Of a stretch of DNA of 64,000 nucleotides, positions 14,292 to 34,275 are shown in pieces. Origin of the DNA: a virus; the IMG/VR virus record IMGVR_UViG_3300009177_000031, positions 1 to 64,000 of that record; one strand, given 5' to 3'. A program made the translations under genes and the position numbers. Within the stretch, counting starts at the first letter, position 1. Each line of letters starts with the position of its first letter. The notes beneath the pieces are model-generated. The model worked only from the letters and a program-made list of their open reading frames with translations. It was not told where the DNA came from and ran no database searches.

Positions 14292-16097
14292 ATGGCGCTT
14301 GTCGATCAGCACGGGCGAGAAGTCTCCGTCATGCCGGTGGATGCACCGGTATCGGAGCAAATCCAGAAGGCAGTCACAGCTGCAACGGAGGAGCTGTTCG
14401 ACAAGATGGATCGCGTGCTGTCGATGTCAGCACCACCGCCACCGAGCGCAAACGAGCCGAAGGGCTGGTACACCGATCCGTTTGCGCTTCTCGACTCGCT
14501 CGGCATGGGCTACCGCGCGAACCCAAGCCACGTGACGTACGAGACGCTTCGTCAAATGACGGAGCGCGACACGTTGCTTGGTAGCATCATCAACACGCGC
14601 ATCGCGCAGATCAGCACGTTCTGTCGCGAGCAAGAGAACAAGTACAGCGTCGGCAACCTGGTGCGTTTGAAGGGCGCCGATCGGCACAAGCGACGTCTGA
14701 CGAACGGTGAGAAGGATCGCAAGAAGAAGATCGAAGCCTACGTCGAGAACATGGGTGGCGAGCGCAACGTCACGCGCGACAAGTTTGGCAACGCGGTGAA
14801 GAAGCTCGTGCGCGACACGCTCTCGTACGATCAGGCGAACATCGAGAATCACTTCACGCGCGGTGGTGACCTGCACCAATCGCTCGTGCTCGACGCGACG
14901 ACGATTCGCATCGCCGATCAGACGAAGACGAACCCTCGCGGCATTCCGCTGAAGCCGTCCGACGAGAAGACGCACATCATGTACGCGCAGATCCTCAACG
15001 GAGAGATCGTGCGCGAGTTCACGCCTCGCGAGCTGGCGTTCCCAATTCGCAATCCGCGCTCGAACCTCAAGGTCGGTGGCTACGGCTTTCCAGAGCCGCA
15101 GCTCCTGATCCAAACCGTCACCGCCCACATTTGGGCTGAGGAGTGGAACCGCAAAGCGTTCTCGCAGGGCTCGACGATCAAGGGTGTCCTCAACATGCGA
15201 GGCAACATCGATCGTCAGAAGTACGACAACTTCAAGCGTCAGTGGACCACGCAGGTTGGTGGCATCACAAACGCGTGGAAGACGCCCATCATCAACAGCG
15301 ACGGCATCGACTTCGTTCCGATGCAGATGTCGAACACGGAGATGGGCTACCAGATGTGGATCGAGTATCTGGTCAAGATCGCGTGCGCCATCTACCAGAT
15401 GGACCCGACCGAGATCAACTTCGACCTGCGCGGTGGCAGTGGTACCGGTCAACAGCCGACGTTCGTCTCGTCAAACGAGGCGCAACAGAAGATGTCGCGC
15501 GACCGCGGTCTGCGCCCGCTGCTTCGCTTCTTCGAGGATCTGTTCAACCAGCACATCATCGATCGCATCGATCCTGACTTCGAGCTGGCGTTTGTCGGTC
15601 TCGACGCGAAGACGGAAGCGGAAGCGGTCGAGCTACGTCAGAAGCAAGGCCAAACGCACCTGACCATCAACGAGGTGCGCGCGCTCGAAGATCTGGATCC
15701 GATTCCTGGTGGCGACGTCATCATGAATCCGACGTACACCGGCTACCTGCTACAGCAACAGCAAATGCAAATGCAGGGTGGCGCTGGTGGCGGTGGTGGT
15801 GGAATGCCTGGCATGCCTGGTGGGCAGCAACAGCAGCAACCGCCAGAGCAACCGTACGCGAATCGGTTTGGACACGCTGGTTCGCCACCGACGGACGGTG
15901 CGAAGGCCGGCGCGAAGAACCTGCAATCGATGTCGCACAACAAGCCGCAGCAAGACGACGTGCACGACGAAGACGACGACATCCGCATCCTGCGGCGTGA
16001 CGATTGGTCATCGAGCGTTCACGCATCGGTGCGTGACAACGACCTGCGTAAGAGCGAGCGGAACGCGGTGGCGGACTTCTTCGAGATCGACCTGTAA
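14292..16097 (+). CDS. Portal protein
   Basis: 601 residues, the usual size for a portal. It would form the dodecameric ring at the head vertex through which DNA is packaged and to which the neck attaches. Visible portal features are RDTLLGSIINTRIAQIS near the start, VRDTLSYDQANIE, PRELAFPIRNPRSN, the crown-helix run, PIINSDGIDFVPMQ, AIYQMDPTEINF, and the EAQQKMSRDRGLRPLLRFFEDLFN helix. The C-terminus is Gln/Gly-rich (about residues 490-520) and probably disordered. The start is ATG 14292 with AGGAG upstream. No terminase is found directly upstream, so it must lie outside the window. Confidence 0.92.
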   Translation: MALVDQHGREVSVMPVDAPVSEQIQKAVTAATEELFDKMDRVLSMSAPPPPSANEPKGWYTDPFALLDSLGMGYRANPSHVTYETLRQMTERDTLLGSIINTRIAQISTFCREQENKYSVGNLVRLKGADRHKRRLTNGEKDRKKKIEAYVENMGGERNVTRDKFGNAVKKLVRDTLSYDQANIENHFTRGGDLHQSLVLDATTIRIADQTKTNPRGIPLKPSDEKTHIMYAQILNGEIVREFTPRELAFPIRNPRSNLKVGGYGFPEPQLLIQTVTAHIWAEEWNRKAFSQGSTIKGVLNMRGNIDRQKYDNFKRQWTTQVGGITNAWKTPIINSDGIDFVPMQMSNTEMGYQMWIEYLVKIACAIYQMDPTEINFDLRGGSGTGQQPTFVSSNEAQQKMSRDRGLRPLLRFFEDLFNQHIIDRIDPDFELAFVGLDAKTEAEAVELRQKQGQTHLTINEVRALEDLDPIPGGDVIMNPTYTGYLLQQQQMQMQGGAGGGGGGMPGMPGGQQQQQPPEQPYANRFGHAGSPPTDGAKAGAKNLQSMSHNKPQQDDVHDEDDDIRILRRDDWSSSVHASVRDNDLRKSERNAVADFFEIDL

Positions 16098-16101
16098 GGC
16101 G

Positions 16102-18633: not shown

Positions 18634-20858
18634 TGCAGGTCATCCTCAGCGGCCACACGGTGCGCGCCGATTTGGAAGCAACGCCAATCGGCGCATTCGA
18701 CGTCATTCGTGACGACGTGCGCATGATCTCCACGGTGAAGCCGGTCGAGCGCATCTTCATCGAGCGCACCGAGACCGGCTATCGCGGCGTGCTGTACTCG
18801 AACGAGAAGCCGTTCCTGTTCGCGCTGAACGGCAACGGTTTCACCGCGAAGCCGATTGCGCAGGATGCGACGGTGTTCGCGTACTGCGACCGTTTGCAGG
18901 ACGAGGAGCGCGACCTGACGATGCGCCTTGATCAAGAGCGCGCAGACGCGGACATGGTGGATGTGAATCGTGTGATGTTCGAGCGCGACTCGAACCTGAC
19001 CGATGATGCAGCTGTGGCTCGCGAAGACGCGTCGCCTGCGACGCTGAAGGTGTGGGGACCGTCAGTCGACATCGCCGATCCAATCGAGCGCGTTCCTGGT
19101 GCGTATCGCAAGATGCGCCAGGGTGGATCGTCACTCGAAGGCAAGCGCAACAACGGCGTTTGCGGTGGCGGCATCGTGATGAAGGATGGGAAGGTGCTTC
19201 TCGTCAAGCCGCGTGGTGGATGGGGTGGCTACGATTGGACGTTCCCGAAGGGCTACCCGGCCGCAATCGACAACAACCATTTGGAGCAAACGGCGGTGCG
19301 CGAGGTGTGCGAGGAGACCGGCTACCGCGTCTTCGCCAATCGCTTCATCGGTCGCTTCTCGCACAACGATGGTGGTGTTTGCGACTACTTCTATTGCGAT
19401 GTCGACAACTCGAAGGAAGCCGGCACGCCGGATCCGCACGAGACGTCGGCGATCAAGTGGTGTTCGCTGGTCGAAGCGTTGGAGCTTCTCAACGATGACG
19501 TCGACGTGAAGATCCTGGCGCAAGCGAACAACCTGCTACCGCAATTGATCATCAAGTCGGAGGGCCACACCGGAACGATGGTGGCGCTGCATCTTCCGAC
19601 GGACATCGCAAAGAAGATCGCACTGAAGGGCGGTGAGGACCCTGCAAAGCTGCACATCACGCTCGCGTACCTCGGCAAAGGACTCAGCGAGCAACAGAAG
19701 AAAACCGCCGCTTCTGTGGTGCGCAGGTTTGCAGAGTCGATCGTCGATGGCTTGAAGGTGACGCTCGGCGGTGTCGGTCGCTTCAGTGCGAGCGGCACGA
19801 CGGAGGGGCGTGACGTTATCTACCTGTCGGTCGATTCGCCATCGCTCACGCGCGTTCGTCCAGAGCTGGCGAACATGCTGCGCGAGGCAGGCTTCGACTT
19901 CGACGTGCAGCACGGCTTCATTCCGCACGTGACGCTCGCGTACGTCGACAAGGACGAGAAGACGCCGATCAATCGCGTGGAGCCGATTGAGATCAAGTTC
20001 GACACGATCTCACTCACGATCGCGAACAAGCAGATGACGTTTCCGCTGAAGCTGTCGAAGCAGAACCAAGAGTTCTACGACGTGGGCCGGCGCAACTACG
20101 AAGCGCTGATGAAGTGGCGCGTCGATAAGCTGGAGAAGATGTACGGCGTCAGGTTGCCGATCAAGCCGCAGGAGTCGGCGACGTTCGTGCGTTTGGACAA
20201 GAGCCTCGATTACGAGCCAGTGATGGTGAAGGCGTTGCCGCGCATGAACAGTGACCAACGCGACGCGAAGAACAAGAAAGTCGGCGTGAAGCCGCCTGGC
20301 GCAGCGAAGAAGCAAGCCGGTGCGACCGGCAAGACGCGCTACACGTATCCGGCCGAGCAAGCAAACGCGAAGCCTGGACAGCCGCAACAGCCTGGTGGGC
20401 AACCGCAGCAACCTGGTGCGCCTGGACAGCCGCAGCAAGGTCAGGATCAGGTGCTTCCGCATCCTGACACGCCGCCGCCGCAACCCGAGCAAGCTCCGAT
20501 TGCAGCCGAGCATCCTGACAAACCGCCGCAGAACGATCCGCGTGGTCCCAATCCGCAAGAGCCGCAGCAACCGAAGCACACGATCAACATCGGCGAGCTG
20601 TGCGCAGCGCTCGGTGTTCAGCGCTCGGTGCTTCAGCAAATCGTTGCGCGCATGCAAAAGAACTTCGGCGCTGACGCGCGGAAGAAGTTCGTGTCGTTCA
20701 TGAGTGTGCAGCTGAAGCAGTTTGCGGACGAGCACGGTTTGGAAGGCGACTACTTCGGTTTGCTGTTCGATGTGCTCACCGGAAAGGTGCAGGAAGGTCA
20801 GCCTGCATCGCAACAGCAACCGCAACCGCAGGGAGGAAGCCGTGGCGCTAAAGCGTGA
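18633..20858 (+). CDS. Nudix hydrolase fused to 2H phosphoesterase
   Basis: 741 residues. Residues about 174-300 are a Nudix domain: GGGIVMKDGKVLLVKPRG, then WTFPKGYP, then the Nudix helix TAVREVCEETGY (Arg223, Glu224, Glu227, Glu228). The first Glu of the Nudix box is replaced by Asn in an extended loop. Residues about 315-440 are a 2H phosphoesterase (2'-5' RNA ligase-like) with HITLAYLG (His341, Thr343) and HVTLAYV (His432, Thr434). The N-terminus (1-140) is unknown. The C-terminus is Pro/Gln-rich (about 570-650) then a helical domain. Nudix enzymes hydrolyse nucleoside diphosphate derivatives; 2H enzymes open cyclic phosphates and include the anti-CBASS protein Acb1. The position between head genes suggests virion association. 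The substrate is unknown. Confidence 0.82.
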   Translation: MQVILSGHTVRADLEATPIGAFDVIRDDVRMISTVKPVERIFIERTETGYRGVLYSNEKPFLFALNGNGFTAKPIAQDATVFAYCDRLQDEERDLTMRLDQERADADMVDVNRVMFERDSNLTDDAAVAREDASPATLKVWGPSVDIADPIERVPGAYRKMRQGGSSLEGKRNNGVCGGGIVMKDGKVLLVKPRGGWGGYDWTFPKGYPAAIDNNHLEQTAVREVCEETGYRVFANRFIGRFSHNDGGVCDYFYCDVDNSKEAGTPDPHETSAIKWCSLVEALELLNDDVDVKILAQANNLLPQLIIKSEGHTGTMVALHLPTDIAKKIALKGGEDPAKLHITLAYLGKGLSEQQKKTAASVVRRFAESIVDGLKVTLGGVGRFSASGTTEGRDVIYLSVDSPSLTRVRPELANMLREAGFDFDVQHGFIPHVTLAYVDKDEKTPINRVEPIEIKFDTISLTIANKQMTFPLKLSKQNQEFYDVGRRNYEALMKWRVDKLEKMYGVRLPIKPQESATFVRLDKSLDYEPVMVKALPRMNSDQRDAKNKKVGVKPPGAAKKQAGATGKTRYTYPAEQANAKPGQPQQPGGQPQQPGAPGQPQQGQDQVLPHPDTPPPQPEQAPIAAEHPDKPPQNDPRGPNPQEPQQPKHTINIGELCAALGVQRSVLQQIVARMQKNFGADARKKFVSFMSVQLKQFADEHGLEGDYFGLLFDVLTGKVQEGQPASQQQPQPQGGSRGAKA

Positions 20859-23208
20859 TCTGATGAAAGCAACGGTGCAGAACCCTGGCTCGCGCGGTGG
20901 CAAGTTCTGGCGTGACGAGAAGGGCGTCATTCACTACGGCGAGAAGCCGGTGGAGGACAAGATCCAGGAGCGCGCGAAGTCGATCCTCGATCAAGTGAAG
21001 CGTCGCGCGCGTGGCAAGGGTGGCGAGATTGCGCTGTCGAAGCAGGATCTGGAGAAGCTGCTTGCGTCAGGCAAGTACGCGCTCGTGAGTGCAGGGCCGA
21101 ATCCAAACCACGCTGACGACAAGAATCTCAGCCAAGACGAAATCAAACGTCGCCACAAACAGCTCGGCGAAGACTTGGTCGATGCTGGCTACATGTTCAC
21201 GAACGTGACCGGTCACTACGGTGGAACCGAAGATTCGTACCTCGTGATGATTCACGATGCGGATCGTAAAGACGTCGACGAGCTTGGGAAGAAGTACCAC
21301 CAAGATTCGATCATCTACGGTGAAGCTGGGCACCAGGAGATGCGCTTCACTTTTGGTGAGCACGTTGGTACGATGCACACCGGTACGGGTTACGAAATCA
21401 AGAACGACGCTGACGACTTCTTCACGATCGTTCGCCATCCAGACGGAAGCTCGACGAAGTTTGCTCTCAACTTCGATTGGGACAAACGAGAGATTGCAAA
21501 AGCGCTCAAGCTGTTGTTCAAAGCAGAGAAGCCGGAAGAGAAGAAGCCGGCGAAAGACGAGAAGGGCGCTGGCTTCAACGAATCGATGGGTGAGCAACCG
21601 GTGGATGCACCGGTCGGATTCGGACCACGCATCGTCAAGTTGCCGATGCACCCAAACGCGGATGTGAATCCGAAGGTGCACGAGGCGAAGATGGAAGAGA
21701 AGAAGCAGCGCGAGAAGTCGCAACCGAAGCTCGCGCTGAAGAAGGGTGCTGGCTGGAACGATAAGGACGAGCGGATGTACCAGCACATCAAGGACAGCGG
21801 TGCGAGCGAGAAGATCGCTGCGGCTACCGTCAACAAGCAACGACGCAAGGAGGGCCGCGTGAAGAAGTCGAAGCCGAGTGTCACGCTGATCAAGGGCGTG
21901 CGTCCAGGTGCGAAGGGCGCAGGCTCACGCGGTGGCAAGATCGCGTACCACACTAAGAGCGGCAAGCCTGTGTATCAGTCGCAGGTGAAGAAGCAAGCGC
22001 CGACGTTTTCACAGATGGGCCACAACTGGACGAAGCACGCCGAGAACGCGGAGAAGAAGATCGCCGACTACAAGGCGGATCCGAACTCGAACAACCCGTC
22101 GCACTATCGTTCGTACGTCGGCGAAGCCGCAGGTAACCATGCGACCGCTGCGAAGCAGCATCTCGTCGCCGCGTTCTACCAGCATCACGCCGGTGACTCG
22201 GACAAGGCGAAGGAACACATGGCAGCGGCGGAACATCACGCCGAGCACGCGAAGAAGCACATGGAGACGTCGGCGAAGCACAAAGGTGACTACGGCGTCA
22301 AACATCATCACCAAACCGCGGTGCGTGCGATGAAGTGGTTCGATGCGAACCACGCATCGACACACGAAGCGGTGCACTACGGTCGCCATCCTGATCCTCA
22401 CATCGAATCGATTGCGCAAGACGCGCAGGATTCCGGCCGTCACGAGGAAGCCAAACGCATTCGTCACTCACAAGACGACGTCAAGAAGGCGCTCACGCCT
22501 AGCAACAACAACGGAGGAAACATGTCGAAGAACGAAGTCGCGGATCTGTTCAAGAGCGAGCTGGGCGAGAGCAACGCCAAGCCCATCACCACGTGCGTGC
22601 ACTGCAAGCACGACCTGACGCGAGACGATCTCAAGAAGGGTCTCGGCACGCACTTCGTCGCAGACGACAACGACAACCCGCACAGCGGTGGCGATGGTTC
22701 TGTCGAGGTCGTTCGCGGCGTTCCTGGCGCGAAGGAGAACGACGAAATCGCGCCGCTCTTGAAGGGTCTCAAGGGCAAGGAGGCCGGCGACAACGAGGAG
22801 TATCCGATCAGCAAGAGCGAGATGGCGACGATGGGCATGAGCGTCGACGGTCTCGATGATGGCTGGTACACGATCACCAAGAGCGAGATGCAGAAGCAGG
22901 CACCGGAGCATCTCGCGTACCTCGTCGATCGCAAGGAGCGCGTCGCGAAGGCGATCAAGCCGACGGTCAACGCGCTGAAGAAGGGCGAGGAGCCGATTCG
23001 CAAGGGTGACACGTCGCGCTCGACGACGGACGGACCGCACGGCTACTCGCCGCGCGCTGGCGGTGTTGTCGGTCCGAGCGGTGAATCGCTCGTGCAGTGG
23101 AGCGAAGGCTCGGACAAGCAGGTCGCCGAGTACATCGAGAAGTCCGGTCACGGCTACGGTCCTGGCAACGACGAGCCGATCCGCACGCAAGGTCGGGGGA
23201 CCTTCTAA
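20842..23208 (+). CDS. Mosaic head-module protein with two GSRGGK modules
   Basis: 788 residues from GTG 20842 (GGAGGAAG upstream, overlapping the Nudix-2H gene by 17 nt). Residues 15-36 carry PGSRGGKFWRDEKG. Residues about 70-220 are an alpha/beta domain (YALVSAGPNPN, GEDLVDAGYMF, DSYLVMIHDADR) that resembles the DUF3293 type. GWNDKDERMYQHIKDSGASE near 310 is a short helical motif known from other phage and bacterial proteins. A second module (residues 361-378, GSRGGK then HTKSGKPVY) leads to a His/Ala-rich helical region. The last 230 residues form a separate part (Cys pair TCVHCKHD) with its own internal start at 22522. Probably a multi-part virion protein. Confidence 0.65.
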   Translation: MALKRDLMKATVQNPGSRGGKFWRDEKGVIHYGEKPVEDKIQERAKSILDQVKRRARGKGGEIALSKQDLEKLLASGKYALVSAGPNPNHADDKNLSQDEIKRRHKQLGEDLVDAGYMFTNVTGHYGGTEDSYLVMIHDADRKDVDELGKKYHQDSIIYGEAGHQEMRFTFGEHVGTMHTGTGYEIKNDADDFFTIVRHPDGSSTKFALNFDWDKREIAKALKLLFKAEKPEEKKPAKDEKGAGFNESMGEQPVDAPVGFGPRIVKLPMHPNADVNPKVHEAKMEEKKQREKSQPKLALKKGAGWNDKDERMYQHIKDSGASEKIAAATVNKQRRKEGRVKKSKPSVTLIKGVRPGAKGAGSRGGKIAYHTKSGKPVYQSQVKKQAPTFSQMGHNWTKHAENAEKKIADYKADPNSNNPSHYRSYVGEAAGNHATAAKQHLVAAFYQHHAGDSDKAKEHMAAAEHHAEHAKKHMETSAKHKGDYGVKHHHQTAVRAMKWFDANHASTHEAVHYGRHPDPHIESIAQDAQDSGRHEEAKRIRHSQDDVKKALTPSNNNGGNMSKNEVADLFKSELGESNAKPITTCVHCKHDLTRDDLKKGLGTHFVADDNDNPHSGGDGSVEVVRGVPGAKENDEIAPLLKGLKGKEAGDNEEYPISKSEMATMGMSVDGLDDGWYTITKSEMQKQAPEHLAYLVDRKERVAKAIKPTVNALKKGEEPIRKGDTSRSTTDGPHGYSPRAGGVVGPSGESLVQWSEGSDKQVAEYIEKSGHGYGPGNDEPIRTQGRGTF
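22522..23208 (+). CDS. Possible internally initiated C-terminal product of the mosaic protein
   Basis: An in-frame ATG at 22522 is preceded by ACGGAGGAAAC, one of the strongest Shine-Dalgarno sites in the window. It lies exactly where the His-rich part ends and an Asn-rich linker (SNNNGGN) begins. Initiation here would give 228 residues beginning MSKNEVADLFKSELG, with CVHCKHD and a C-terminal GYGPGNDEPIRTQG stretch. Either two genes became fused in frame, or both long and short forms are made. The site is visible; use is inferred. Confidence 0.4.
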   Translation: MSKNEVADLFKSELGESNAKPITTCVHCKHDLTRDDLKKGLGTHFVADDNDNPHSGGDGSVEVVRGVPGAKENDEIAPLLKGLKGKEAGDNEEYPISKSEMATMGMSVDGLDDGWYTITKSEMQKQAPEHLAYLVDRKERVAKAIKPTVNALKKGEEPIRKGDTSRSTTDGPHGYSPRAGGVVGPSGESLVQWSEGSDKQVAEYIEKSGHGYGPGNDEPIRTQGRGTF

Positions 23209-23434: not shown

Positions 23435-26400
23435 ATGAACGACGACATCGATTTTGACGCGTTGTATGAAGGTCTCAACGTCGACACCGACTTGATGATC
23501 AAAGCGACGCTTCGCGTGCCTGCGCGTCCGATGAAGAACGCAGTCGCGCAATCGCTGTCGTTGGACCTGAAGGCTTTGTACAAGGCGCGCGCAGAAGCGT
23601 TGATGGCGGACATCACCGACGTGATGAACGAAGAGGAGCCGATTGCAAAGGCCGATCTGATCTTCGCGAATGGGCGCGTTTTGTTCAAAGCTTTGACAGG
23701 GCAACCGAAGCCACCACCTTCGGCACCGAAGCTTGAAACGCATCAGCAACCAGGTCACGCAAACGCACCGAAGACGCCGAGCGCTGGCGCAGGTGCGAAG
23801 TCGACGATGCCTGGTGGACAGCGTCGTCTCACAGCGTCCGGCTACATCCACGTCGAGACTCCTGGCTCGCGTGGTGGAAAGTTCTGGCGCGACGAGAAAG
23901 GCAACGTGCGCTACGGCGACAAGCCGAGCGGCACCTTCCAAGTGGAAGCGCCACCGCATGATGTCGTGGAGCACTACAGGAAGTATTACGCGCCGCAGCC
24001 GTTTGCAGCGCACAACCAGATGGACATGCACGAAGCTCTCATGCAGAGCGAAGTGCTCACGGAAGCCGATCACGGCTTCATGGACTTCTGGCACGAGAAC
24101 TACGATGAGGTTCTGAGCCTCATCAGTGGTGGCAAGCTCACGCGCAAGGACGTCGAGAAGGCCGGGGGTTTGCAGAACTGTTCGTTCCAGATCAACGGAC
24201 GTCCGTGCAGCGTGGGTGAGGCGATCGAGGAGTTCTTCAAGGCGAACGTCGGTGCGTTTGTCGGTGACGAAACGTACGGCGACATTGAGACGCCGGAAGA
24301 CATCCTCGAAGCGGTGCGCGGCTTGATGGACCGCTACCGCAAAGCGCTGCACGAAGATCCGAAGGTGCAAGCGCTCGCGCAAGCCGCAGCGGAGAAGCGC
24401 GAAGCCGAGCGCAACGCGTTCTACCTGACGTGCGAGCACACCGCGGAGGAGTTCTCGCCGCTCGCCGGCGATCTTGTCACGAAGGAGGACTTCGAGGATC
24501 TGACGTTCAAAGCGACCGCTGCAATGGCGCAGATGGGTCTCATCGAGCGCGGTGGCAAAGGCAGCGTTGCTCAGCGCCGCATGCGCGGTGCAATCGTTCC
24601 GAAGTCGAGCATGCTGTTGCAGGACAAGCGCAACATGGGTTCGCTTTGGAAGGACGATCAGCTCGAACGTCTCAGCGCGCCGCAGCTGATGGCGGTGCAC
24701 ATTGCAGTCGATGCGCAGGAGTCGTTCTCGAAGGACAACACCTACGAGTACGAGCCTGGTGCGCCAAACGCGAACCGCGACCGCGTGTTCGATCTCATTT
24801 GCAGCAAGCTCGGCGTCGACCCGGACGATCAGGTCGCGAAGAACACGCTGAAGCGCAAGCTGGAGAAGACGACGGAAGCGACGCTGCGCGCGATGACGAA
24901 CTACAACACCGGACAGGATCCGATGTTCGCGCTCGCGATGACGAAGCGCATCTGTGACATCTACAAGAACGCCGATTGGCTAGAAGACCACAAGAAGAAG
25001 GTCGCCGAGGAGCAATCGCGCATTCAGGAGATCCTCGCTGCGCAAGAGGACACGTCGTTCGAGCCTCCACCGTCGATGGTAAACGGCGTTTGGAACGGCA
25101 AGACGCTGAAGGATGCGAACAAGCCAGAGAAGGGCGTTTGGGCTCCGTTCGAGTACCAGAAGAAGTACATCAACTGGATGCTCAAGGCGAAGCGCGGTGT
25201 GATTGCAGCCGATGCCGGCATGGGCAAGACGCCGATCGTGATCGCGTTCCGTGAGCTGCTTGCATCGCAGGGCAAAGACGTTCCTGCCATTTGCTTCCTA
25301 CCACCGTCGTTGATGGAGCAGTGGCCTGCGGCGATCCAGAAGTTCGCGCCAGAGAACGCCGACAAGATCCTCAACCTCAGTGGTCTCTCGTTGGAGGAGC
25401 GCAAGGTCGCTTTGCAAAGCGACATGGCGAAGAAGGCTCGCTACATCTTCATCAGCACCGGCACGCTCACCGGTGACGTGCCGGATCCGAACTCGACGGA
25501 AGACGAGAACGATGGCACCGGTGGTTCTGACCACGAGATGGTCGAGATCCTGAAGAACCTCGAAGGCGCGGTGTTCATCGACGAAGCGCACCAAGGCGGT
25601 TACAAGAAAGCCGGCAACACGCGCCACGAGATTGCAAAGGCGGTGATGGAGGGTCGCGAGTACGCGTTCGGCATGACGGCTACGCCGATGCCAAACGATC
25701 CGATGGACGTCTATCACCTCGCGAACCTGTTTGCGCCTGGCAGCGTTGGTGACGCCGAGCTGTGGGCTGGTCGCACCGCTGGTGTGGCGTGGAACGAAGA
25801 GGAAGGTCGTTATGAGGTGTCGAACCCGGAGCACCTTGCAGAGCTGAACCAGCGCCTCAAGCCGTTCGTGTTCTACAAGAGCGTCAACGATCCAGACGTC
25901 GTGAAGGACATGGGCAAGGGTCTTCCGCAGAAGACCGGTGTGCACGAAGACTCAGCGATGCACGAGGGTGAGGGCGATCTGAATCTGTCAGGTCACTCGA
26001 ACGCGCAGAACGGTTTGTCGCAGCACGACTACTTCAAAGAGGGTGGTGTCATTGACACCATGATCGAGCTGCGCATCGCGCGTTTGGTGCGCGAGCGAGC
26101 GGAGAAGATTGCAAACGGCGAAGTGAATCCTTCGACCGGTGAGCCGTACAAGGCGTACCACCCCAAGTTCCTTCAGCTGATGGCTGGCGGCATGAAGATC
26201 ATGCTGCAACGGCAAGCGTCGATCTCGCCAGCGCTCATCGATCACACGTATCGCAAGTCCGATGGTGGCGTTGCGCACTCGCCGAAGATCAAGGCGCTGT
26301 GCGATGACATCGTCGCGCACTTCTCAAACGGTGGTCAGGGTGGTGACGACGCGAAGCCGCTCGTCGTGTTCTCATCGTTCCCTGGCAAAGCGTTTCCGCT

Positions 26401-27937
26401 CGTGCGCAAAGCGCTCGCCGAACGCGGTGTGGATCCGTCGCTCATCGAGACGATTGCAGGCGACGTCGCTCCGACGGAGCGCGGCTACATGCAGGACAAG
26501 CTGAACAAGGGCCACGCGAAGGTGCTCCTTGTCGGCACGATGTCAGGTGGCGCCGGTCTGAACCTTCAGGAAGCGGCGAACAAGACGCTGTTCCTCGATG
26601 AGCCGTGGAACCCGGCTGCAAAGCGTCAGGCGATTGGTCGCGTTTGGCGCACCGGACAGAACAACGTCGTGCACGAGAAGACGTACCGTTCGGTTGGTAC
26701 GTACGACTCGGTGGTGGAGCAGAAGATCGCAGGCAAGCAAGCGATGGTCGCTGCGCTTCTCGGAAAGGACATGCCGACGGAGGCATCGTTCAAGCCGGAC
26801 ACGTCGATCAAGGAGCTGCTTGGTCGCGTGAAGGGCACCGACTACACCGAGGATCAGATCAAAGCGATCATGGAGAACTCGAAGAACTACGATTTGGCTT
26901 CGAGTGAGCACAAGCAAGCCGAACAGCTTTTGCAATCGATGCACGATGAGGATTGGAAGGAGAAGGCCGGTGGTCAGGGCTTCGGTGGTGGCGTTTCCGC
27001 AACGCTGACCGACAAGGACTTCGAGCCGAACAAGGAAGCGCAGAAGACGCTCAAGAACAAGGGCGCGCACAAACTCACCGAAGCGTTCGATGAGAAGGAG
27101 TTCCGCGGCAAGTGGGAGATGGATCGCGATAAGCGCCGCTCGAAGCAGAACTACGAGATGGCGAACCTGATGGCTGACGTGTACAGCCAGCAAGGGAACA
27201 AAGAGAAAGCTGACGAGTACAAGCGTCGCGCTGACGAGCTTGCCGAGAAGTACCCTGAACTCGGTGGTGCAAAGGACGGTGGTGCGAAGAAGAAGGGCAA
27301 GGACGAGAAGCCGAAGGCCGAGAAGAAGGGCGACGAGAAGAAGCCTGCGAAGGGTGGCGACAAGAAGCAATCGAAGGAAGGTGGCGAGAGCGAGCAAACG
27401 AAACCGCCACCGCGCGCGACTGCAACGGTTGCTGACGCCGAGCACGAGCTGAAGCAAAAGGCGAAGGCGCAGGACGCGCACACCAAGACGCAAACGGAGA
27501 AGGTGAAGCAGCGCAAGCCGCAAGAGACGACGAACAAGCTCGGTGGCAATCCTGACGAGCAAGAGGCGCCGGTCAAGCCGGCGACCTTGAAGCAGCCGGT
27601 GGTGAAGCGCAACGAAGCGCTCGGTGTCGACTTCCACTCGAAGGACAATCCGTTCCCGGAGAACGGACGCAAGGTGAAGGGCACCGACGTCTCGAACGCG
27701 GAAGCGAACTACGTACTCGATGTGCTGCACAAAGAGAAGAAGCTGAAGTCGTGGGACGAGTTCATCACGACGCACATCAAGCCGGTTTGGGACGAAGAGG
27801 ACGGTCGCAATCCGTTCTCGATGAAGGCTGCGCACGAGTACGTCGGCAAGATCGTCGACGCGATCTCGAATCAAGGCTTGATGACGCTCAACGAGCCGAT
27901 GAAGGCTGCGAAGAAGCAGACCAAGAAGGAGAAGTAG
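23435..27937 (+). CDS. SNF2-family helicase/translocase in the head module
   Basis: 1500 residues. The helicase core spans about 565-1110. Motif I is DAGMGKT (Lys598), motif II is FIDEAHQGG (Asp716-His719), motif III is MTATPMP (747-753). Motif V is GGAGLNLQEA and motif VI is QAIGRVWRTGQ (Gln1065, Arg1069, Arg1072), the SNF2 pattern. It would translocate on duplex DNA using ATP. The N-terminus has the PGSRGGKFWRDEKG module (143-164), then a helical domain. The C-terminus is a long Lys/Glu/Gly-rich linker followed by a small domain. Unlike replication helicases it sits among head genes, as in P1 DarB-type injected proteins. Virion packaging is inferred. Confidence 0.88.
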   Translation: MNDDIDFDALYEGLNVDTDLMIKATLRVPARPMKNAVAQSLSLDLKALYKARAEALMADITDVMNEEEPIAKADLIFANGRVLFKALTGQPKPPPSAPKLETHQQPGHANAPKTPSAGAGAKSTMPGGQRRLTASGYIHVETPGSRGGKFWRDEKGNVRYGDKPSGTFQVEAPPHDVVEHYRKYYAPQPFAAHNQMDMHEALMQSEVLTEADHGFMDFWHENYDEVLSLISGGKLTRKDVEKAGGLQNCSFQINGRPCSVGEAIEEFFKANVGAFVGDETYGDIETPEDILEAVRGLMDRYRKALHEDPKVQALAQAAAEKREAERNAFYLTCEHTAEEFSPLAGDLVTKEDFEDLTFKATAAMAQMGLIERGGKGSVAQRRMRGAIVPKSSMLLQDKRNMGSLWKDDQLERLSAPQLMAVHIAVDAQESFSKDNTYEYEPGAPNANRDRVFDLICSKLGVDPDDQVAKNTLKRKLEKTTEATLRAMTNYNTGQDPMFALAMTKRICDIYKNADWLEDHKKKVAEEQSRIQEILAAQEDTSFEPPPSMVNGVWNGKTLKDANKPEKGVWAPFEYQKKYINWMLKAKRGVIAADAGMGKTPIVIAFRELLASQGKDVPAICFLPPSLMEQWPAAIQKFAPENADKILNLSGLSLEERKVALQSDMAKKARYIFISTGTLTGDVPDPNSTEDENDGTGGSDHEMVEILKNLEGAVFIDEAHQGGYKKAGNTRHEIAKAVMEGREYAFGMTATPMPNDPMDVYHLANLFAPGSVGDAELWAGRTAGVAWNEEEGRYEVSNPEHLAELNQRLKPFVFYKSVNDPDVVKDMGKGLPQKTGVHEDSAMHEGEGDLNLSGHSNAQNGLSQHDYFKEGGVIDTMIELRIARLVRERAEKIANGEVNPSTGEPYKAYHPKFLQLMAGGMKIMLQRQASISPALIDHTYRKSDGGVAHSPKIKALCDDIVAHFSNGGQGGDDAKPLVVFSSFPGKAFPLVRKALAERGVDPSLIETIAGDVAPTERGYMQDKLNKGHAKVLLVGTMSGGAGLNLQEAANKTLFLDEPWNPAAKRQAIGRVWRTGQNNVVHEKTYRSVGTYDSVVEQKIAGKQAMVAALLGKDMPTEASFKPDTSIKELLGRVKGTDYTEDQIKAIMENSKNYDLASSEHKQAEQLLQSMHDEDWKEKAGGQGFGGGVSATLTDKDFEPNKEAQKTLKNKGAHKLTEAFDEKEFRGKWEMDRDKRRSKQNYEMANLMADVYSQQGNKEKADEYKRRADELAEKYPELGGAKDGGAKKKGKDEKPKAEKKGDEKKPAKGGDKKQSKEGGESEQTKPPPRATATVADAEHELKQKAKAQDAHTKTQTEKVKQRKPQETTNKLGGNPDEQEAPVKPATLKQPVVKRNEALGVDFHSKDNPFPENGRKVKGTDVSNAEANYVLDVLHKEKKLKSWDEFITTHIKPVWDEEDGRNPFSMKAAHEYVGKIVDAISNQGLMTLNEPMKAAKKQTKKEK

Positions 27938-27940
27938 GCG

Positions 27941-28405
27941 ATGCCAAATCGCGAGAAGTCGAACCACGTCGTGTTCCGCACCGTCAATCGCGGTGACGGA
28001 AAGAAGGGCATCGAGGCGCACACGCCTGAGAAGGTGCTTCCGATCCACGACAAGAAGGAACTCGAAGCGCAGCTGAAGCACTACGCGAAGTTTCTTCTAT
28101 CGCTGACGACAGGAAGTAACGTCGCTGCGCGTCGGAAGTATGTCGAGCTGATTCGTCCGGCGCTGCGCTACTACTGCAAGAAGTTCAACGTGCAGGCACC
28201 GAAGTGGCTCGCAAACGACGACTACTACACCAAGACGATGGACACCGCGACGAAGCAGCAGATGTTCGGCATGCGCCCGCTTCGCATCGGGGAGTTTCAG
28301 AAGCTGAAGCCGGTCGAAGGTGTCGAGAGCGTTTCGTATCCAGGCAAGGAGCCGGATGCGGAGGAGCAAGGAGCAAAGGCAAATGGGCAAGCCCCTCAGC
28401 GATAA
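27941..28405 (+). CDS. Hypothetical head-module protein, 154 aa
   Basis: The ATG follows the helicase stop by three bases. The protein is basic at the start (REKSNHVVFRTVNRG), has helical segments ELEAQLKHYAKFLL and RRKYVELIRPALRYYCKKF, then LKPVEGVESVSYPG and an acidic end. It overlaps the minor head gene by 23 nt. A structural or accessory head role follows from position only. Confidence 0.6.
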   Translation: MPNREKSNHVVFRTVNRGDGKKGIEAHTPEKVLPIHDKKELEAQLKHYAKFLLSLTTGSNVAARRKYVELIRPALRYYCKKFNVQAPKWLANDDYYTKTMDTATKQQMFGMRPLRIGEFQKLKPVEGVESVSYPGKEPDAEEQGAKANGQAPQR

Positions 28406-29336
28406 GCAACGAGAGAAGATCAGCAAGCTGATTGCTGACCATCACCTCGCGTTTGCCGTCGAGGTGCTTGGGCCTGACGCGATTCCGCGCGCTGAGCTTC
28501 AGCGTTTGCAGCGTGAAGGCATCCTGAAGCAGCACGAAGTCGAGCACGCGCAGGTTGCGATTCCAGCTGCGCACATGCTTGGCAAGCAAGCAGCGTCAAA
28601 CGCGCAGCTCGCGCGCATGCCGCCAGAGCAGTTCTGGCAGTTCATCGAGCACGCACCGCCGCAGTTCAGCAAGCACGATCTCGACGCGATGAACGCGGCG
28701 AAAGCTGTGGTTGGTCGTTTGATCGTCAACCTCGGTGTCGGTTTGCTCAACGAGTTCGAGAGTGCCAGCCATGAAGAAGCAGCAAAGCTTCGTCAGGAAG
28801 CGTTGGGGGTTGTACAACACGAGGTTGCGCTCGGCATCGCACGACGTTCTGCGAAGGAGAAAATCCAGCGTCGCTTGCGAGACAAGCTCGGCGAGTCGGA
28901 ACGCAATTGGGCGCTTGTGGTACAAACCGAACTCCACAACGCGCAGGAGTACGGCAAGGCGCTCGGACTCGGCGCTGACGGGCGAGACCCGATCGTCTAC
29001 AAGCGGCCACGTCCTGACGCTTGTCGTTTCTGCAAGCTCCTGTACCTCGTCGATGGTGTACGTCCTCGTCTCTTCCGTCTCTCAGTGCTCGTGAAGAACG
29101 GCACGAACTACGGAAAGCGTGCGCGACGTCCTTCGTTCCGTGGTGCAGGCGCAACGGAATGGAAGGCGACCGTCGGCTGCGTGCATCCTGGTTGTCAGTG
29201 CGAGATGCACCAGATGCCGGAAGGCATGACGTTCGACAAGCAGGGGAAGCTCGTTGCGTCTGTGCGCAAGAGCATCGAGCCTGACGTTCTCACCGCCGAT
29301 CTTCGGAAGCTCATCGGTCACCGGTGCGTCGCATGA
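28383..29336 (+). CDS. Minor head protein, Mu gpF / SPP1 gp7-like
   Basis: 317 residues. Helical N-terminal 200 residues lead into the conserved C-terminal signature. WALVVQTELHNAQEYG matches the family RTE helix, RPRPDACRFCKLLY provides the Asp-x-Cys-x-x-Cys part, and GCVHPGCQCEM is the His/Cys end of the motif. These proteins join the portal vertex or scaffold and are injected or needed for head morphogenesis. Its presence after the portal is normal, though here separated from it by 12 kb of extra genes. Its stop overlaps the kinase-like gene as ATGA, so the two are coupled. Confidence 0.8.
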   Translation: MGKPLSDKQREKISKLIADHHLAFAVEVLGPDAIPRAELQRLQREGILKQHEVEHAQVAIPAAHMLGKQAASNAQLARMPPEQFWQFIEHAPPQFSKHDLDAMNAAKAVVGRLIVNLGVGLLNEFESASHEEAAKLRQEALGVVQHEVALGIARRSAKEKIQRRLRDKLGESERNWALVVQTELHNAQEYGKALGLGADGRDPIVYKRPRPDACRFCKLLYLVDGVRPRLFRLSVLVKNGTNYGKRARRPSFRGAGATEWKATVGCVHPGCQCEMHQMPEGMTFDKQGKLVASVRKSIEPDVLTADLRKLIGHRCVA

Positions 29337-30202
29337 CTCAGCTCGAAACCATCGTGAAGCGGATGAAGCCGGTCTCGATCAAGATGATCGCGGAAGGCAA
29401 CGTCGGCGCACGTCTGGTGACGTATCCGAACGGCGCGCAGGTCGTGATGAAGATCTGTTCGTCTGTAACGACGAAGAACCAGCGCACGACGCAACGCGGT
29501 CTGCCCACCGAGACAGAACCGAAGCGCGAAGTCGCGTTCTATCGGCTGTGCAAGTTGCTCGGTTGGGACATCGTGCCGGAAACCGTTTTGGGCGAATTCG
29601 CCGGTTTCCCTGCGTCGTTTCAGCAATACATGACGGCGGCGAAGCTCTACGACGTGGAGCCGCGCCTGCGGAACCCGGGCAAGAACAGGGTGGCGTGGCA
29701 GATCGCGCTGCGCGAAACCTTGCGAGACAAGGTTCCATTTGAAGACACGCTGCGCCTGACAGTGCTAGATTTCCTGGCAGGGTCGCGCGATCGTCATGCT
29801 GCTAATTATGGTGTTCGTTTGGATGTGTCTGCCAACAAAGCTCGTTGGCGACTCATCGGTTGGGACAACGGTTGCTCGTTTGGTTTGACGCAAGCGTTGT
29901 ACAAATGCGTCGCTCACAAGTGGGTCTTCCGTTACGCGTTCGATCTGTCGACTGTTTGGGATGACCTTCGACGCATTCGACGTTCAGAACTCGCTTCTGC
30001 ACTGAGTGGCCTGATCGACGACGAAGCTATCGACCACGTTTGGCATCGAGTTCAGTTTGTACTCACGTTTCCACATCGCATGCCGTGGAAGACGCTTTCG
30101 CAAGGGCATGACGACGGTGACTCCTTTCCGTCGTACGCAGAATGGTTCAAACCGATGCTGGGCACCAAACCCTTCTACATCTTGCAAACGCAGGCGCTGT
30201 AG
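29333..30202 (+). CDS. HipA/PI3-4-kinase-like protein kinase-fold enzyme
   Basis: 289 residues. All core elements of the kinase fold are visible in order. VVMKICSS gives the ATP-binding Lys40, REVAFYRL the helix-C Glu66, and GFPASFQQYM is the hinge region. AGSRDRHAANYGV gives the catalytic Asp153 with Asn158, and RLIGWDNGCSFG the metal-binding Asp178. The D-R-H-x-x-N and D-N-G forms match the HipA/PI3-PI4-kinase branch rather than ordinary Ser/Thr kinases. Substrates of such enzymes include translation factors, lipids and proteins. It is coupled to the gpF-like gene and precedes the prohead protease, so virion delivery or capsid modification is plausible. Confidence 0.72.
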   Translation: MTQLETIVKRMKPVSIKMIAEGNVGARLVTYPNGAQVVMKICSSVTTKNQRTTQRGLPTETEPKREVAFYRLCKLLGWDIVPETVLGEFAGFPASFQQYMTAAKLYDVEPRLRNPGKNRVAWQIALRETLRDKVPFEDTLRLTVLDFLAGSRDRHAANYGVRLDVSANKARWRLIGWDNGCSFGLTQALYKCVAHKWVFRYAFDLSTVWDDLRRIRRSELASALSGLIDDEAIDHVWHRVQFVLTFPHRMPWKTLSQGHDDGDSFPSYAEWFKPMLGTKPFYILQTQAL

Positions 30203-30226: not shown

Positions 30227-30973
30227 ATGCGTGACAACGACCTTCTAGACGGCAAAGACGACTTCTTGATTTGGACGCCGAGCTGCGTCGAGATCATCAT
30301 GAAGGCTGGTGTCGACATCGAGCGCACGCGTCCAATCGGTGGAACGTGTTCGACCGAGCGTCTCGATCGCCAGGACGAGAAGGTGTTCGCGAAGGGACTC
30401 GACTTCAACGAGTTCGTGAACCACGGCTACTTCAACGACAACCACAAGCAGAACACGGCTGACATCCTCGGCTATCCGAACATGGCCGAGCTACGCAAGG
30501 GTCGTTGGTGGACCGAAGGCAACTTGCTTCTCGATTGGGAGCCTGCAAATCGTGTTTGGGCGCTCGCGAAAGCGCTCTCAAAGAGCACTGCGAAACGCAG
30601 GCTCGGCTTCTCGATCGAAGGCAAGGTAACGGAGCGCGGTTACGACAACCGCATCACGAAGGCGATCATTCGCCACGTCGCAATCACCAATTCGCCGGTG
30701 AACACCGATTGCACGTGGGACATTCTCGCGAAGGCGTTTGGCTCGATGGAGGAGCTGGAAGGTGCTTCGTTGCGTCGCGCGCTGAGCGCGGGTGCTTCGT
30801 CGCCGGGTTCCAGTGGAGGCGCAGCGCTCGCAGGTGGGCGTGTGGAGCGCAAGCCGATCGAGCTGACGTTCGACGAAGCGGTGAAGGTTCTTAAAGCGCA
30901 TCGTCCGCAGTACGCGTGGGGAACGTGCGAGCGGCTCGCTCGTGTGATTTTCAAACAAGAACGGAGGAACTGA
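30227..30973 (+). CDS. Prohead (capsid maturation) serine protease
   Basis: 248 residues. It would cleave the scaffold and capsid precursor after prohead assembly. FNEFVNHGYFNDNHKQ supplies the catalytic His73 region, GRWWTEGNL and LAKALSK follow, and RRLGFSIEGKV holds the nucleophile Ser129. AIIRHVAITNSPVN matches the usual strand after it. This is the HK97/S78-like arrangement. Residues 185-201 (ALSAG-x2-SP-x3-GG-x-AL) closely match a segment of the capsid protein, suggesting a self-cleavage site. The C-terminal 45 residues end in RPQYAWGTCERLAR. Start ATG 30227 with AGGAG. Confidence 0.8.
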   Translation: MRDNDLLDGKDDFLIWTPSCVEIIMKAGVDIERTRPIGGTCSTERLDRQDEKVFAKGLDFNEFVNHGYFNDNHKQNTADILGYPNMAELRKGRWWTEGNLLLDWEPANRVWALAKALSKSTAKRRLGFSIEGKVTERGYDNRITKAIIRHVAITNSPVNTDCTWDILAKAFGSMEELEGASLRRALSAGASSPGSSGGAALAGGRVERKPIELTFDEAVKVLKAHRPQYAWGTCERLARVIFKQERRN

Positions 30974-31777: not shown

Positions 31778-31813
31778 GCGAAGCGGTTGCAAAACCACCA
31801 AGGAGAAACGCAA

Positions 31814-32833
31814 ATGGCAAATCCAAGCCAAGACGAACTTCTCGCCGAGCTGGATAAGCTGGAGAAGTCGACGCTCAAGAAGGGTGGCGACGCACTTCAG
31901 AACGCCCCACACGACGGTGGTTTTGCCACCCAAGGGACGAACATCCAGGAGAAGGCGAAGAAGATGTACAAGGCTCTCCGCAAGGGAGGGTTCTCGAAGA
32001 AGGAAGCGAAGAAGGCCGTCTACAAGGCGTTCGGCGACGAGGAAAGCTCGTCGGACGAGTCTTCGGCGATGTCTTCGGTCGAGAAGGCGATCGGAAGCGC
32101 CGATTCGATGTCGAGCGATGATGCGAGCGGCGATGACGAATCGTCGGATGGCACGTCGAGCGAAGACGAATCGTCCGACGAGTCTTCGGCGATGTCGTCG
32201 CCGATGAAGAAGTCGACCGGCGCTGCGGCGATGGCGAACGCTGTCGCTGGCGCGAAGCCGCAAGAGGATTCGATTCGCAAGGCGCTCACCGACGAGCATC
32301 CTGACGTCGCTGGTGCGCTCGATGCGGTTCCGATTCTCGGTCAGCTGATCGACGCAATCGATCGCATGGCCAAGGGCGGTGGCAAGTCGAGCAAGAAGGC
32401 GCTGGGCAGCATTCGCAAGGCGCTCGTCGCCGAGTCGGAAGCGCGCAACGACTTCAACAGCCGTCTCGCGAAGGCGCTCGTGCACATGACCGGGCGCATG
32501 ATCGGCATCGAGGATCTCGTGAAGAAGATGGCGAGCGAGCCGGTGAACACCGGCAATCGTCAGCCGTCGCTTCGCAAGAGCGATTTGCAGCAACCGTCGT
32601 TTCACGATGGCGGTACGCAGCGAATCACCGGTGGCAACGGCGATCCCAACCAGGTGTCGCCGCTGACGCAACTTCCCTACCTGCAAATCCAAGAGGCTCT
32701 CACCGAGCTGTGCATGAAGGGCGGTGCCGAGCTGATGGACATCACGAAGTTCGAGAACAGCAAGGGCGACCTGCGGCTGTTGCCGCCGAACGTCATCGAG
32801 CAACTGGAGAAGCGTCTCTGCGCTGCGGCGTAA
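31814..32833 (+). CDS. Acidic scaffold-like protein
   Basis: 339 residues from ATG 31814 (AAGGAG upstream). It starts with a charged helix (ELLAELDKLEKSTLKK), then a basic helix and a long Ser/Asp/Glu-rich acidic segment (about 75-140), then Ala/Lys-rich helices and a final helical domain. High charge, helicity and placement just before the major capsid gene suit a scaffolding or assembly protein. HDGG occurs at residues 33-36 and 264-267, each after a Pro, resembling the capsid segment PRHDGG. This suggests protease cleavage during maturation. Confidence 0.62.
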   Translation: MANPSQDELLAELDKLEKSTLKKGGDALQNAPHDGGFATQGTNIQEKAKKMYKALRKGGFSKKEAKKAVYKAFGDEESSSDESSAMSSVEKAIGSADSMSSDDASGDDESSDGTSSEDESSDESSAMSSPMKKSTGAAAMANAVAGAKPQEDSIRKALTDEHPDVAGALDAVPILGQLIDAIDRMAKGGGKSSKKALGSIRKALVAESEARNDFNSRLAKALVHMTGRMIGIEDLVKKMASEPVNTGNRQPSLRKSDLQQPSFHDGGTQRITGGNGDPNQVSPLTQLPYLQIQEALTELCMKGGAELMDITKFENSKGDLRLLPPNVIEQLEKRLCAAA

Positions 32834-32874: not shown

Positions 32875-34275
32875 ATGGAAGGCAATCACGTTGGTCTGTC
32901 TGACTACGAGGGACTGACCGGGTTCGGTCTGCTCCCGACCGGAGACACCGAGGAGATCCAAAAGGCTCTCTCGGCCGGCTACCAATCGCCGCGTCACGAC
33001 GGCGGTTCCGCACTGCGCGTGGAGTCGCTCGAAGCGACGCTGCGCATCCTCACGTTCTCGCAAGGACACGTGAAGCTCTGGAAGGACATTCCGAAGCTTC
33101 CGGCGTACTCGACGAGCGAGGAGTACACCGTGCAAACGGCGTACGGCGGTGAGAACGGACCGTTCACTCGTGAAGGCGAGCTTCCGCAAGTCCAGGATGC
33201 GACGTACGAGCGTCGTGTCGAGCTGGTGAAGTTCCTCGGCACGCAGCGCGAAGTGACGCATCCGGCGACGCTCGTGCGCAATGCGTACGGCAACATCATC
33301 GCTCGCGAGACGCAGAACGGCGCGATCTGGCTGATGGAGCGTCTGGAGCGCAACCTGTTCCGCGGTCAAGCGTCGGTCATCCCGGAGTGCTTCGACGGCA
33401 TCGACGAGCAGATCCTCCGCGATCCGTTCGCGAGCGCGAACAACGTGCTCGATCTTCGCGGCGGTCCGATCACGGAAGACGTGATGGAAGAGGCGACGAA
33501 CATCATCGTGGAGAACTACGGTCTCTCCTCGGCGCTGTACCTCGCACCGCGCGCGCATTCGGACATGTCGAAGCAGTTCTACTCGCGTCAGCGCGGTGGC
33601 TTCGGCGAGCGCGAGGGTCGCATCGGCTACTCGGCGAAGATGATGGAGACGAACGCGGGCGACATCGCGCTTCGTGGCGACATCTTCCTGCGCAGCGGCA
33701 AGAACAACGGCGTCAAGACGGCACCGGCCGGCCAGACGTCGGTGCGCGCGCCGAACGCTCCGACGACGGTCACGGGCGCGCACGGCGCGAACGCTGGCTC
33801 GCTGTTCGGTGCGGCGGATGCCGGCACGTACCAGTATTGCGTCACCGCGCTGAACCGCTTCGGCGAGTCGGCGCTGACGCAGGTTGCTGGTGGCGTTGCG
33901 CCGGTGTCCGGTGACGCGGTCACGCTCACGATCACCGATGGTGGTGGTGGTGACACGGCCACGGGTTACCGCGTCTACCGCTCGAAGAACGGTGGTGCGG
34001 TGGGCACGGAGCAATTCGTGCTCGACATCCCGCGTCCGACCGGCGCGGCGACGACGGCGTTCGTCGACGTCAACCAGTTCCTGCCAGGCACGTCGCGCGC
34101 GTACCTGTTGCAGATGAACCTGCAATCGCTGTCGTTCCGACAGCTCGCTCCGATGATGAAGATCCCGCTCGCGACGCTCGCCGCGTCGATCCGCTGGATG
34201 CAGCTCATCTACGGAACGCCGATCGTGTACGCACCGCGCAAGAACCTGATCCTCATCAACGTCGCCGACGACTGA
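32875..34275 (+). CDS. Major capsid protein with Ig/FN3-like insertion
   Basis: 466 residues, ATG 32875 with AAGGAG. It would form the head shell with an HK97-like fold: an N-terminal delta region, VKLWKDIPKLPAYS, EREVEL-type helix region, QNGAIWLMERLERNLF spine and ALYLAPRAHSDMSKQF. Residues about 295-400 form an extra beta domain (TYQYCVTALNRFGESAL, TGYRVYRSKNGG) of fibronectin-III/Ig type, probably exposed on the capsid surface. It ends with IYGTPIVYAPRKNLILINV, the usual last strand. ALSAGYQSPRHDGGSAL (31-47) resembles the protease C-terminal segment and is the likely maturation site. A terminator follows. Confidence 0.85.
   Translation: MEGNHVGLSDYEGLTGFGLLPTGDTEEIQKALSAGYQSPRHDGGSALRVESLEATLRILTFSQGHVKLWKDIPKLPAYSTSEEYTVQTAYGGENGPFTREGELPQVQDATYERRVELVKFLGTQREVTHPATLVRNAYGNIIARETQNGAIWLMERLERNLFRGQASVIPECFDGIDEQILRDPFASANNVLDLRGGPITEDVMEEATNIIVENYGLSSALYLAPRAHSDMSKQFYSRQRGGFGEREGRIGYSAKMMETNAGDIALRGDIFLRSGKNNGVKTAPAGQTSVRAPNAPTTVTGAHGANAGSLFGAADAGTYQYCVTALNRFGESALTQVAGGVAPVSGDAVTLTITDGGGGDTATGYRVYRSKNGGAVGTEQFVLDIPRPTGAATTAFVDVNQFLPGTSRAYLLQMNLQSLSFRQLAPMMKIPLATLAASIRWMQLIYGTPIVYAPRKNLILINVADD

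What the first reader, a model, noticed from the sequence alone, without database searches (positions are those of the whole stretch)
29333..30202. HipA/PI3-4-kinase-like enzyme coupled to the gpF-like minor head gene
Lys40, Glu66, Asp153, Asn158 and Asp178 form a complete kinase catalytic set in a 289-residue protein. ATGA overlap links it to the minor head gene. HipA-type enzymes phosphorylate translation factors; PI-kinase folds may act on proteins. A virion-associated kinase of this type would be unusual.
Basis: partly seen in the sequence, partly recalled or inferred. Interest (0 to 1): 0.72.

Follow-up and report, generated by a model that had tools for sequence, protein, structure and literature searches.

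The report
Phage head-module PI4K-like kinase
An environmental tailed phage and at least 28 related viral contigs carry, locked between two capsid-assembly genes, an enzyme gene built like human phosphatidylinositol 4-kinase II with every catalytic residue intact; it is probably a protein kinase carried in or made with the virus head to modify the host, though packaging and substrate are untested.

Summary
ORF 29333-30202 encodes 289 aa with K40, E66, D153, N158 and D178 exactly as stated, and it overlaps the upstream head gene by ATGA. The gene recurs in 28 other viral contigs. In the 22-sequence alignment these five residues, plus R152, R154, H155 and N179, are invariant. dN/dS against the nearest relative is about 0.09. 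AlphaFold2 (pLDDT 78, pTM 0.80) gives a kinase fold closest to PI4-kinase II (Z 19.6); Fam20 and CtkA follow (16.3), then HipT/HipA (14) and CotH (11.3). By sequence it is nearest to SCO1664-type proteins and the PI3/4-kinase domain of Myxococcus phage Mx1. So it is a PI4KII/Fam20-like kinase, not HipA proper. The order SNF2, MuF, kinase, protease, scaffold, MCP is fixed, and kinase distances track those of MuF, protease and MCP. A sister clade with homologous head proteins lacks it, so the capsid does not need it. Unrelated viruses also place PI4K-like domains in structural modules (HSTV-2, HHTV-1, Mx1). Best reading: a late-made, probably head-packaged effector protein kinase (confidence 0.45). 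Rivals: a morphogenesis kinase or an unpackaged late kinase. No packaging, activity or substrate evidence exists.

The parts
29333..30202 (+). PI4KII/Fam20-like kinase gene, 289 aa
29450..29452 (+). K40, predicted ATP-binding lysine (VVMK)
   Evidence: invariant in 22 relatives
29528..29530 (+). E66, predicted salt-bridge glutamate (KREVAFY)
   Evidence: invariant in 22 relatives; on helix 59-75 in the model
29786..29806 (+). R152-D153-R154-H155-x-x-N158, catalytic loop
   Evidence: R, D, R, H and N invariant in 22 relatives
29864..29869 (+). D178-N179 of the WDNG motif, predicted Mg-binding aspartate
   Evidence: invariant in 22 relatives
29333..29336 (+). ATGA overlap of MuF stop and kinase start
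28320..29336 (+). MuF/gpF-like minor head protein (start uncertain; a later ATG at 28383)
   Evidence: relatives hit Pfam VG15 (8e-6) and Phage_Mu_F (0.0036); viral structure matches are head-morphogenesis and minor capsid proteins
27941..28405 (+). small conserved gene upstream of MuF
   Evidence: synteny
30227..30973 (+). head maturation protease
   Evidence: PHROG 1028, 1.4e-44
31787..32833 (+). scaffold-position protein before the capsid gene
   Evidence: synteny; name inferred from position
32875..34275 (+). major capsid protein, related to that of SPO1-like phages
   Evidence: PHROG 752, 1.7e-87; tblastn 35-38% to SPO1-like phages
14292..16097 (+). portal protein
   Evidence: Pfam Phage_portal 2.6e-21
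23435..27937 (+). SNF2 helicase-type large protein with DarB-like similarity, part of the conserved order

Best explanation
The gene encodes a catalytically competent small kinase of the PI4KII/Fam20/HipA superfamily. Shown: the predicted fold, the invariant catalytic set, purifying selection, and co-descent with the head genes. Inferred: it is translated with the MuF-like minor head protein through the ATGA overlap, is carried in the head and enters the cell with the DNA, and there phosphorylates host protein(s) to help takeover or blunt defence, in the manner of head-borne effectors such as T4 Alt. A protein substrate is preferred over a lipid one because most bacteria lack phosphoinositides (general knowledge).
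For: Kinase: TIGR03843 1.1e-8, predicted fold with PI4KII Z 19.6, hhalign 92.7% to an SCO1664-type protein and 96% to the Mx1 kinase, whose own domain passes Pfam PI3_PI4_kinase (2.9e-8); negative controls 0.2-0.3%. Selection and descent. Head context: order kept across contigs. Effector context: upstream large genes carry NUDIX plus 2H phosphoesterase, SAM-lyase-like and DarB-like SNF2 domains; NUDIX, 2H and SNF2 are among the classes proposed to be packaged in heads or fused to MuF or portal in PMC5512222 and PMC9503650. Parallels: HSTV-2 gp16 joins a PI3/4K-like domain to an N-terminal domain that HF1/HF2-type haloviruses carry without the kinase; HHTV-1 gp13 carries RDIHGGN and DNG motifs two genes from a gpF-like gene; the Mx1 kinase lies beside a GNAT-ART-NUDIX polyvalent protein; viral structural matches include proteins annotated head morphogenesis, portal and ADP-ribosyltransferase. 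Capsid assembly does not require it: a sister clade lacks it.
Against: No proteomic, biochemical or expression data. The kinase lacks the PGSRGG-type N-terminal peptide shared by three upstream large proteins, and has no fusion to MuF here. Strict retention and co-descent with the head genes would also fit a morphogenesis role. Some relatives have 170-600 bp between MuF and kinase, so coupling is not universal. The sister clade fills the same slot with an unrelated protein of 636-852 aa, of unknown role.
Confidence: 0.45

Rival explanations
1. Morphogenesis kinase: it phosphorylates the MuF-like protein, scaffold, protease or portal during head assembly or maturation and has no host target.
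For: Fixed position between minor head gene and protease, translational overlap, single copy, distances co-vary with MuF, protease and MCP.
Against: A sister clade with homologous MuF, protease, scaffold and MCP has no kinase in the interval, and its larger records hold none elsewhere; SPO1-like phages with related head proteins lack it too.
Confidence: 0.25
2. Late-expressed host-directed or anti-defence kinase that is not packaged and merely rides in the late operon.
For: No packaging signal seen; the shared PGSRGG peptide is absent from it; phage T7 has a host-directed kinase made inside the cell (discussed in PMC5512222).
Against: Unrelated viruses also put such domains in head or connector-position genes. 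A gene made only late has little time to act on the host.
Confidence: 0.2
3. Kinase-fold protein that does not phosphorylate: a structural ATP-binding protein, or an enzyme with another transfer chemistry (AMPylation, as in some kinase-fold enzymes).
For: Kinase folds with altered chemistry exist (general knowledge); substrate unknown.
Against: K40, E66, D153, N158 and D178 are all invariant in the relatives.
Confidence: 0.08

Closest known systems
Phosphatidylinositol 4-kinase type II (PI4KII alpha/beta)
   Same: Closest solved fold: Z 19.6, 228 residues aligned at 3.6 A; DR...N and DNG-type motifs (motif comparison from memory).
   Different: About 17% identity, no significant sequence match to any PDB chain; no CCPCC cysteine motif; phage gene of 289 aa.
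SCO1664 family (TIGR03843)
   Same: Closest sequence family; alignment over 167 columns from N-lobe to DNG motif, hhalign 92.7%.
   Different: 34.8 bits against a cut-off of 172.4; the SCO1664-type protein compared has DRKGGH where this one has DRHAAN; not a phage head gene.
Kinase of Myxococcus phage Mx1 (WNM70334.1)
   Same: Homologous kinase domain (hhalign 96%) in a cultured phage that also has a homologous MuF-like gene; lies in its structural region.
   Different: Mx1 protein is 619 aa with a weak N-terminal GNAT match and lies after the capsid gene beside a polyvalent protein, not after MuF.
PI3/4K-like proteins of haloviruses HSTV-2 (gp16) and HHTV-1 (gp13)
   Same: PI4K-like catalytic motifs in proteins of the head module.
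   Different: Sequence similarity to the window family limited to the catalytic loop; fused to other sequence; archaeal hosts.
HipA/HipT protein kinases
   Same: Same superfamily fold, Z about 14.
   Different: No HipA N-terminal domain, no HipB-like partner, HipA_C score 11.5 against 30.5.
Fam20/CtkA and CotH kinases
   Same: Superfamily fold, Z 16.3 (Fam20, CtkA) and 11.3 (CotH).
   Different: No significant family-profile match (Fam20C 0.026 in one member).
Virion-packaged polyvalent and MuF-fused effectors (PMC5512222)
   Same: Head-module enzyme gene among NUDIX/2H, SAM-lyase-like and SNF2 genes.
   Different: Stand-alone, small; the kinases described there are a different, C-lobe-less group.

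Membership tests
Kinase superfamily (PI4K/HipA/Fam20 branch) | two-lobed kinase fold | tested here: met
   AF2 model and PDB matches
Kinase superfamily (PI4K/HipA/Fam20 branch) | K, E, D, N, D catalytic set | tested here: met
   invariant in A2
Kinase superfamily (PI4K/HipA/Fam20 branch) | ATP-dependent phosphotransfer | not testable with these tools
   needs an assay
PI4-kinase type II | closest fold is PI4KII | tested here: met
   Z 18.5-19.6 against 16.3 for the next families
PI4-kinase type II | significant sequence similarity | tested here: not met
   no PDB chain at E up to 5; no Pfam PI3_PI4_kinase hit for the window protein
PI4-kinase type II | CCPCC palmitoylation motif (from memory) | tested here: not met
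   absent from the translation
HipA toxin | HipA N-terminal domain | tested here: not met
   no Pfam match
HipA toxin | HipA_C at curated cut-off | tested here: not met
   11.5 against 30.5 bits
HipA toxin | adjacent HipB antitoxin | tested here: not met
   neighbours are MuF-like gene and head protease
SCO1664 family TIGR03843 | curated cut-off of 172.4 bits | tested here: not met
   34.8 bits
Fam20C | significant Pfam Fam20C match | tested here: not met
   best 0.026 in one of eight members
Head-packaged phage effector | gene within the head module | tested here: met
Head-packaged phage effector | fusion to a head protein or shared N-terminal peptide of neighbouring large proteins | tested here: not met
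   stand-alone; PGSRGG-type peptide absent
Head-packaged phage effector | presence in virion | not testable with these tools
   needs virion proteomics
MuF/gpF minor head protein (upstream gene) | Pfam Phage_Mu_F at cut-off | tested here: not met
   window protein no hit; two relatives at best 0.0036
MuF/gpF minor head protein (upstream gene) | structural similarity to head-morphogenesis proteins | tested here: met
   most named viral structure matches

The most novel reading that the evidence does not exclude
A previously undescribed, strictly maintained family of PI4KII-like protein kinases is a core virion component of a clade of environmental myoviruses and is injected with the DNA to phosphorylate host proteins before any phage gene is expressed.
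Probability: 0.4. Interest if true: 0.75.

Novelty: new variant of a known kind. Interest (0 to 1): 0.55.

Why it matters
Head-borne ADP-ribosyltransferases are known, but a head-borne kinase of the PI4K/Fam20 branch has not been described in the papers I could search. If real it would extend virion-delivered host modification to phosphorylation by this branch. The Mx1 relative in a cultured Myxococcus phage makes part of it testable now, and the kinase-free sister clade gives a natural control.

Tried and rejected
HipA proper: rejected on domain, partner and score. Lipid kinase activity: not excluded, but disfavoured. Chance ORF: rejected. Cargo gene exchanged freely between phages: disfavoured by co-variation with the head genes. 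PHROGs, PDB sequence searches and two bacterial genome scans gave no relatives; these scans use short patterns and do not exclude distant ones. The only tblastn phage hit (MT835969, E 0.1) turned out to be an SCO1664-type protein, probably from an actinobacterial chromosome fragment (inference). The profile comparison of the MuF-like family with the HHTV-1 gpF-like protein was uninformative (6%), as was the PDB comparison of its model (best Z 6.5). A pattern scan with the MuF-like protein found no viral relatives, though related loci were reached through other genes. Literature searches found no paper on these phage kinases; PMC8651126 does not discuss the halovirus one.

Full report
The window is bases 1-64000 of an 88309-bp IMG/VR virus record. 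Its genes include a portal, a head maturation protease and a capsid protein related to those of SPO1-like phages, and a tail sheath, so it is a contractile-tailed phage.

Observation. Relatives lie on 28 other viral contigs. In a 22-sequence alignment (two rows truncated at the C-terminus) 25 columns are invariant and include all five residues plus R152, R154, H155 and N179. Third-position differences dominate and dN/dS against L004 is 0.23/2.56, about 0.09 (the dS is near saturation). The gene is real and under purifying selection.

What it is. The NCBIfam model TIGR03843 (SCO1664 family) matches at 1.1e-8 but far below its cut-off; Pfam gives only weak HipA_C and Fam20C hits; PHROGs gives none. 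The AlphaFold2 model (pLDDT 78.3, pTM 0.80; residues 251-289 unreliable) matches PI4-kinase type II best by Foldseek (7.8e-8) and by VIA-align (Z 19.6, 3.6 A, 228 residues), ahead of Fam20 and CtkA (16.3), a bacterial Ser/Thr kinase and HipA (about 14) and CotH (11.3). Profile comparison links it to an SCO1664-type protein (92.7%) and to the annotated kinase of Myxococcus phage Mx1 (96%), whose domain passes the Pfam PI3_PI4_kinase cut-off; a capsid protein and another Mx1 protein score 0.2-0.3%. It is therefore a PI4KII/Fam20-branch kinase, not HipA proper.

Context. In the loci that span the region the order is SNF2, small gene, MuF-like, kinase, protease, scaffold-position gene, capsid, with occasional inserts; in L037 and L038 the small gene was not detected. 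The MuF-like label rests on relatives (VG15 at 8e-6; Phage_Mu_F 0.0036) and on viral structure matches named head morphogenesis, minor capsid, MuF-like and gpF-like, since the window protein has no Pfam hit. Pairwise distances of the kinase correlate with those of MuF (0.926), protease (0.956) and capsid (0.844), none of 5000 permutations reaching these. The kinase is single-copy in the six larger records tested.

Absence elsewhere. Eight loci from a sister clade have MuF-like and protease genes but no kinase between them; in those read, the slot holds an unrelated protein of 636-852 aa. Four of their records searched whole, and the related Bacillus, Lysinibacillus, Chryseobacterium and Bacteroides phages, have no match. 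The virus records may be fragments. The head proteins can thus work without the kinase.

Parallels. HSTV-2 gp16 joins PI3/4K-like motifs (Pfam 1.5e-5, just under cut-off) to an N-terminal domain that HF1/HF2-type haloviruses have without the kinase; orthologues are annotated phosphatidylinositol kinase. HHTV-1 gp13, two genes before a gpF-like gene, has RDIHGGN and DNG motifs. Both were reached by structure; sequence comparison covers only the catalytic loop. Mx1 has its kinase, with a weak GNAT match, beside a GNAT-ART-NUDIX protein between capsid and sheath genes. These suggest that PI4K-like kinases entered structural modules more than once, although common ancestry of the kinases is not excluded.

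Mechanism. Position, effector-like neighbours (NUDIX and 2H phosphoesterase, SAM-lyase-like, DarB-like SNF2) and published reasoning on MuF- and portal-linked effectors (PMC5512222, PMC9503650) favour a head-borne effector kinase. This is inference: no packaging signal was found and the PGSRGG-type peptide of three neighbours is missing. I put the effector reading at 0.45, a morphogenesis kinase at 0.25, an unpackaged late kinase at 0.2, and a non-phosphorylating kinase fold at 0.08.

Noticed in passing
15778-18633, 20722-23208, 23435-27937: Three large proteins between portal and MuF share a near-N-terminal peptide PGSRGG[KQ]FWxDxKG; SNF2 proteins of L043 and L045 have a variant, and slot proteins of the sister clade have KYVKRTGxPGNYKYWY. 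A possible packaging or processing tag.
   Followed up: partly
18591-20858: 755-aa protein with NUDIX and 2H phosphoesterase domains, weakly similar to the anti-CBASS protein Acb1 (0.0048).
   Followed up: no
20722-23208: 828-aa protein with an S-adenosylmethionine lyase-like domain (2.6e-7), the class of the T3 anti-restriction enzyme.
   Followed up: no
L065 2584-4713 and equivalents in L060, L064, L067, L069, L071, L075: Sister clade carries an unrelated protein of 636-852 aa, rich in Ala and Arg in the middle, in the slot that holds the kinase here.
   Followed up: partly
L088 8405-12844: Myxococcus phage Mx1 1479-aa polyvalent protein with GNAT, ART-PolyVal and NUDIX domains next to its kinase.
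   Followed up: no
L083 (MT835969): Record labelled Bacteriophage sp. encodes an SCO1664-type protein and may be an actinobacterial chromosome fragment.
   Followed up: partly
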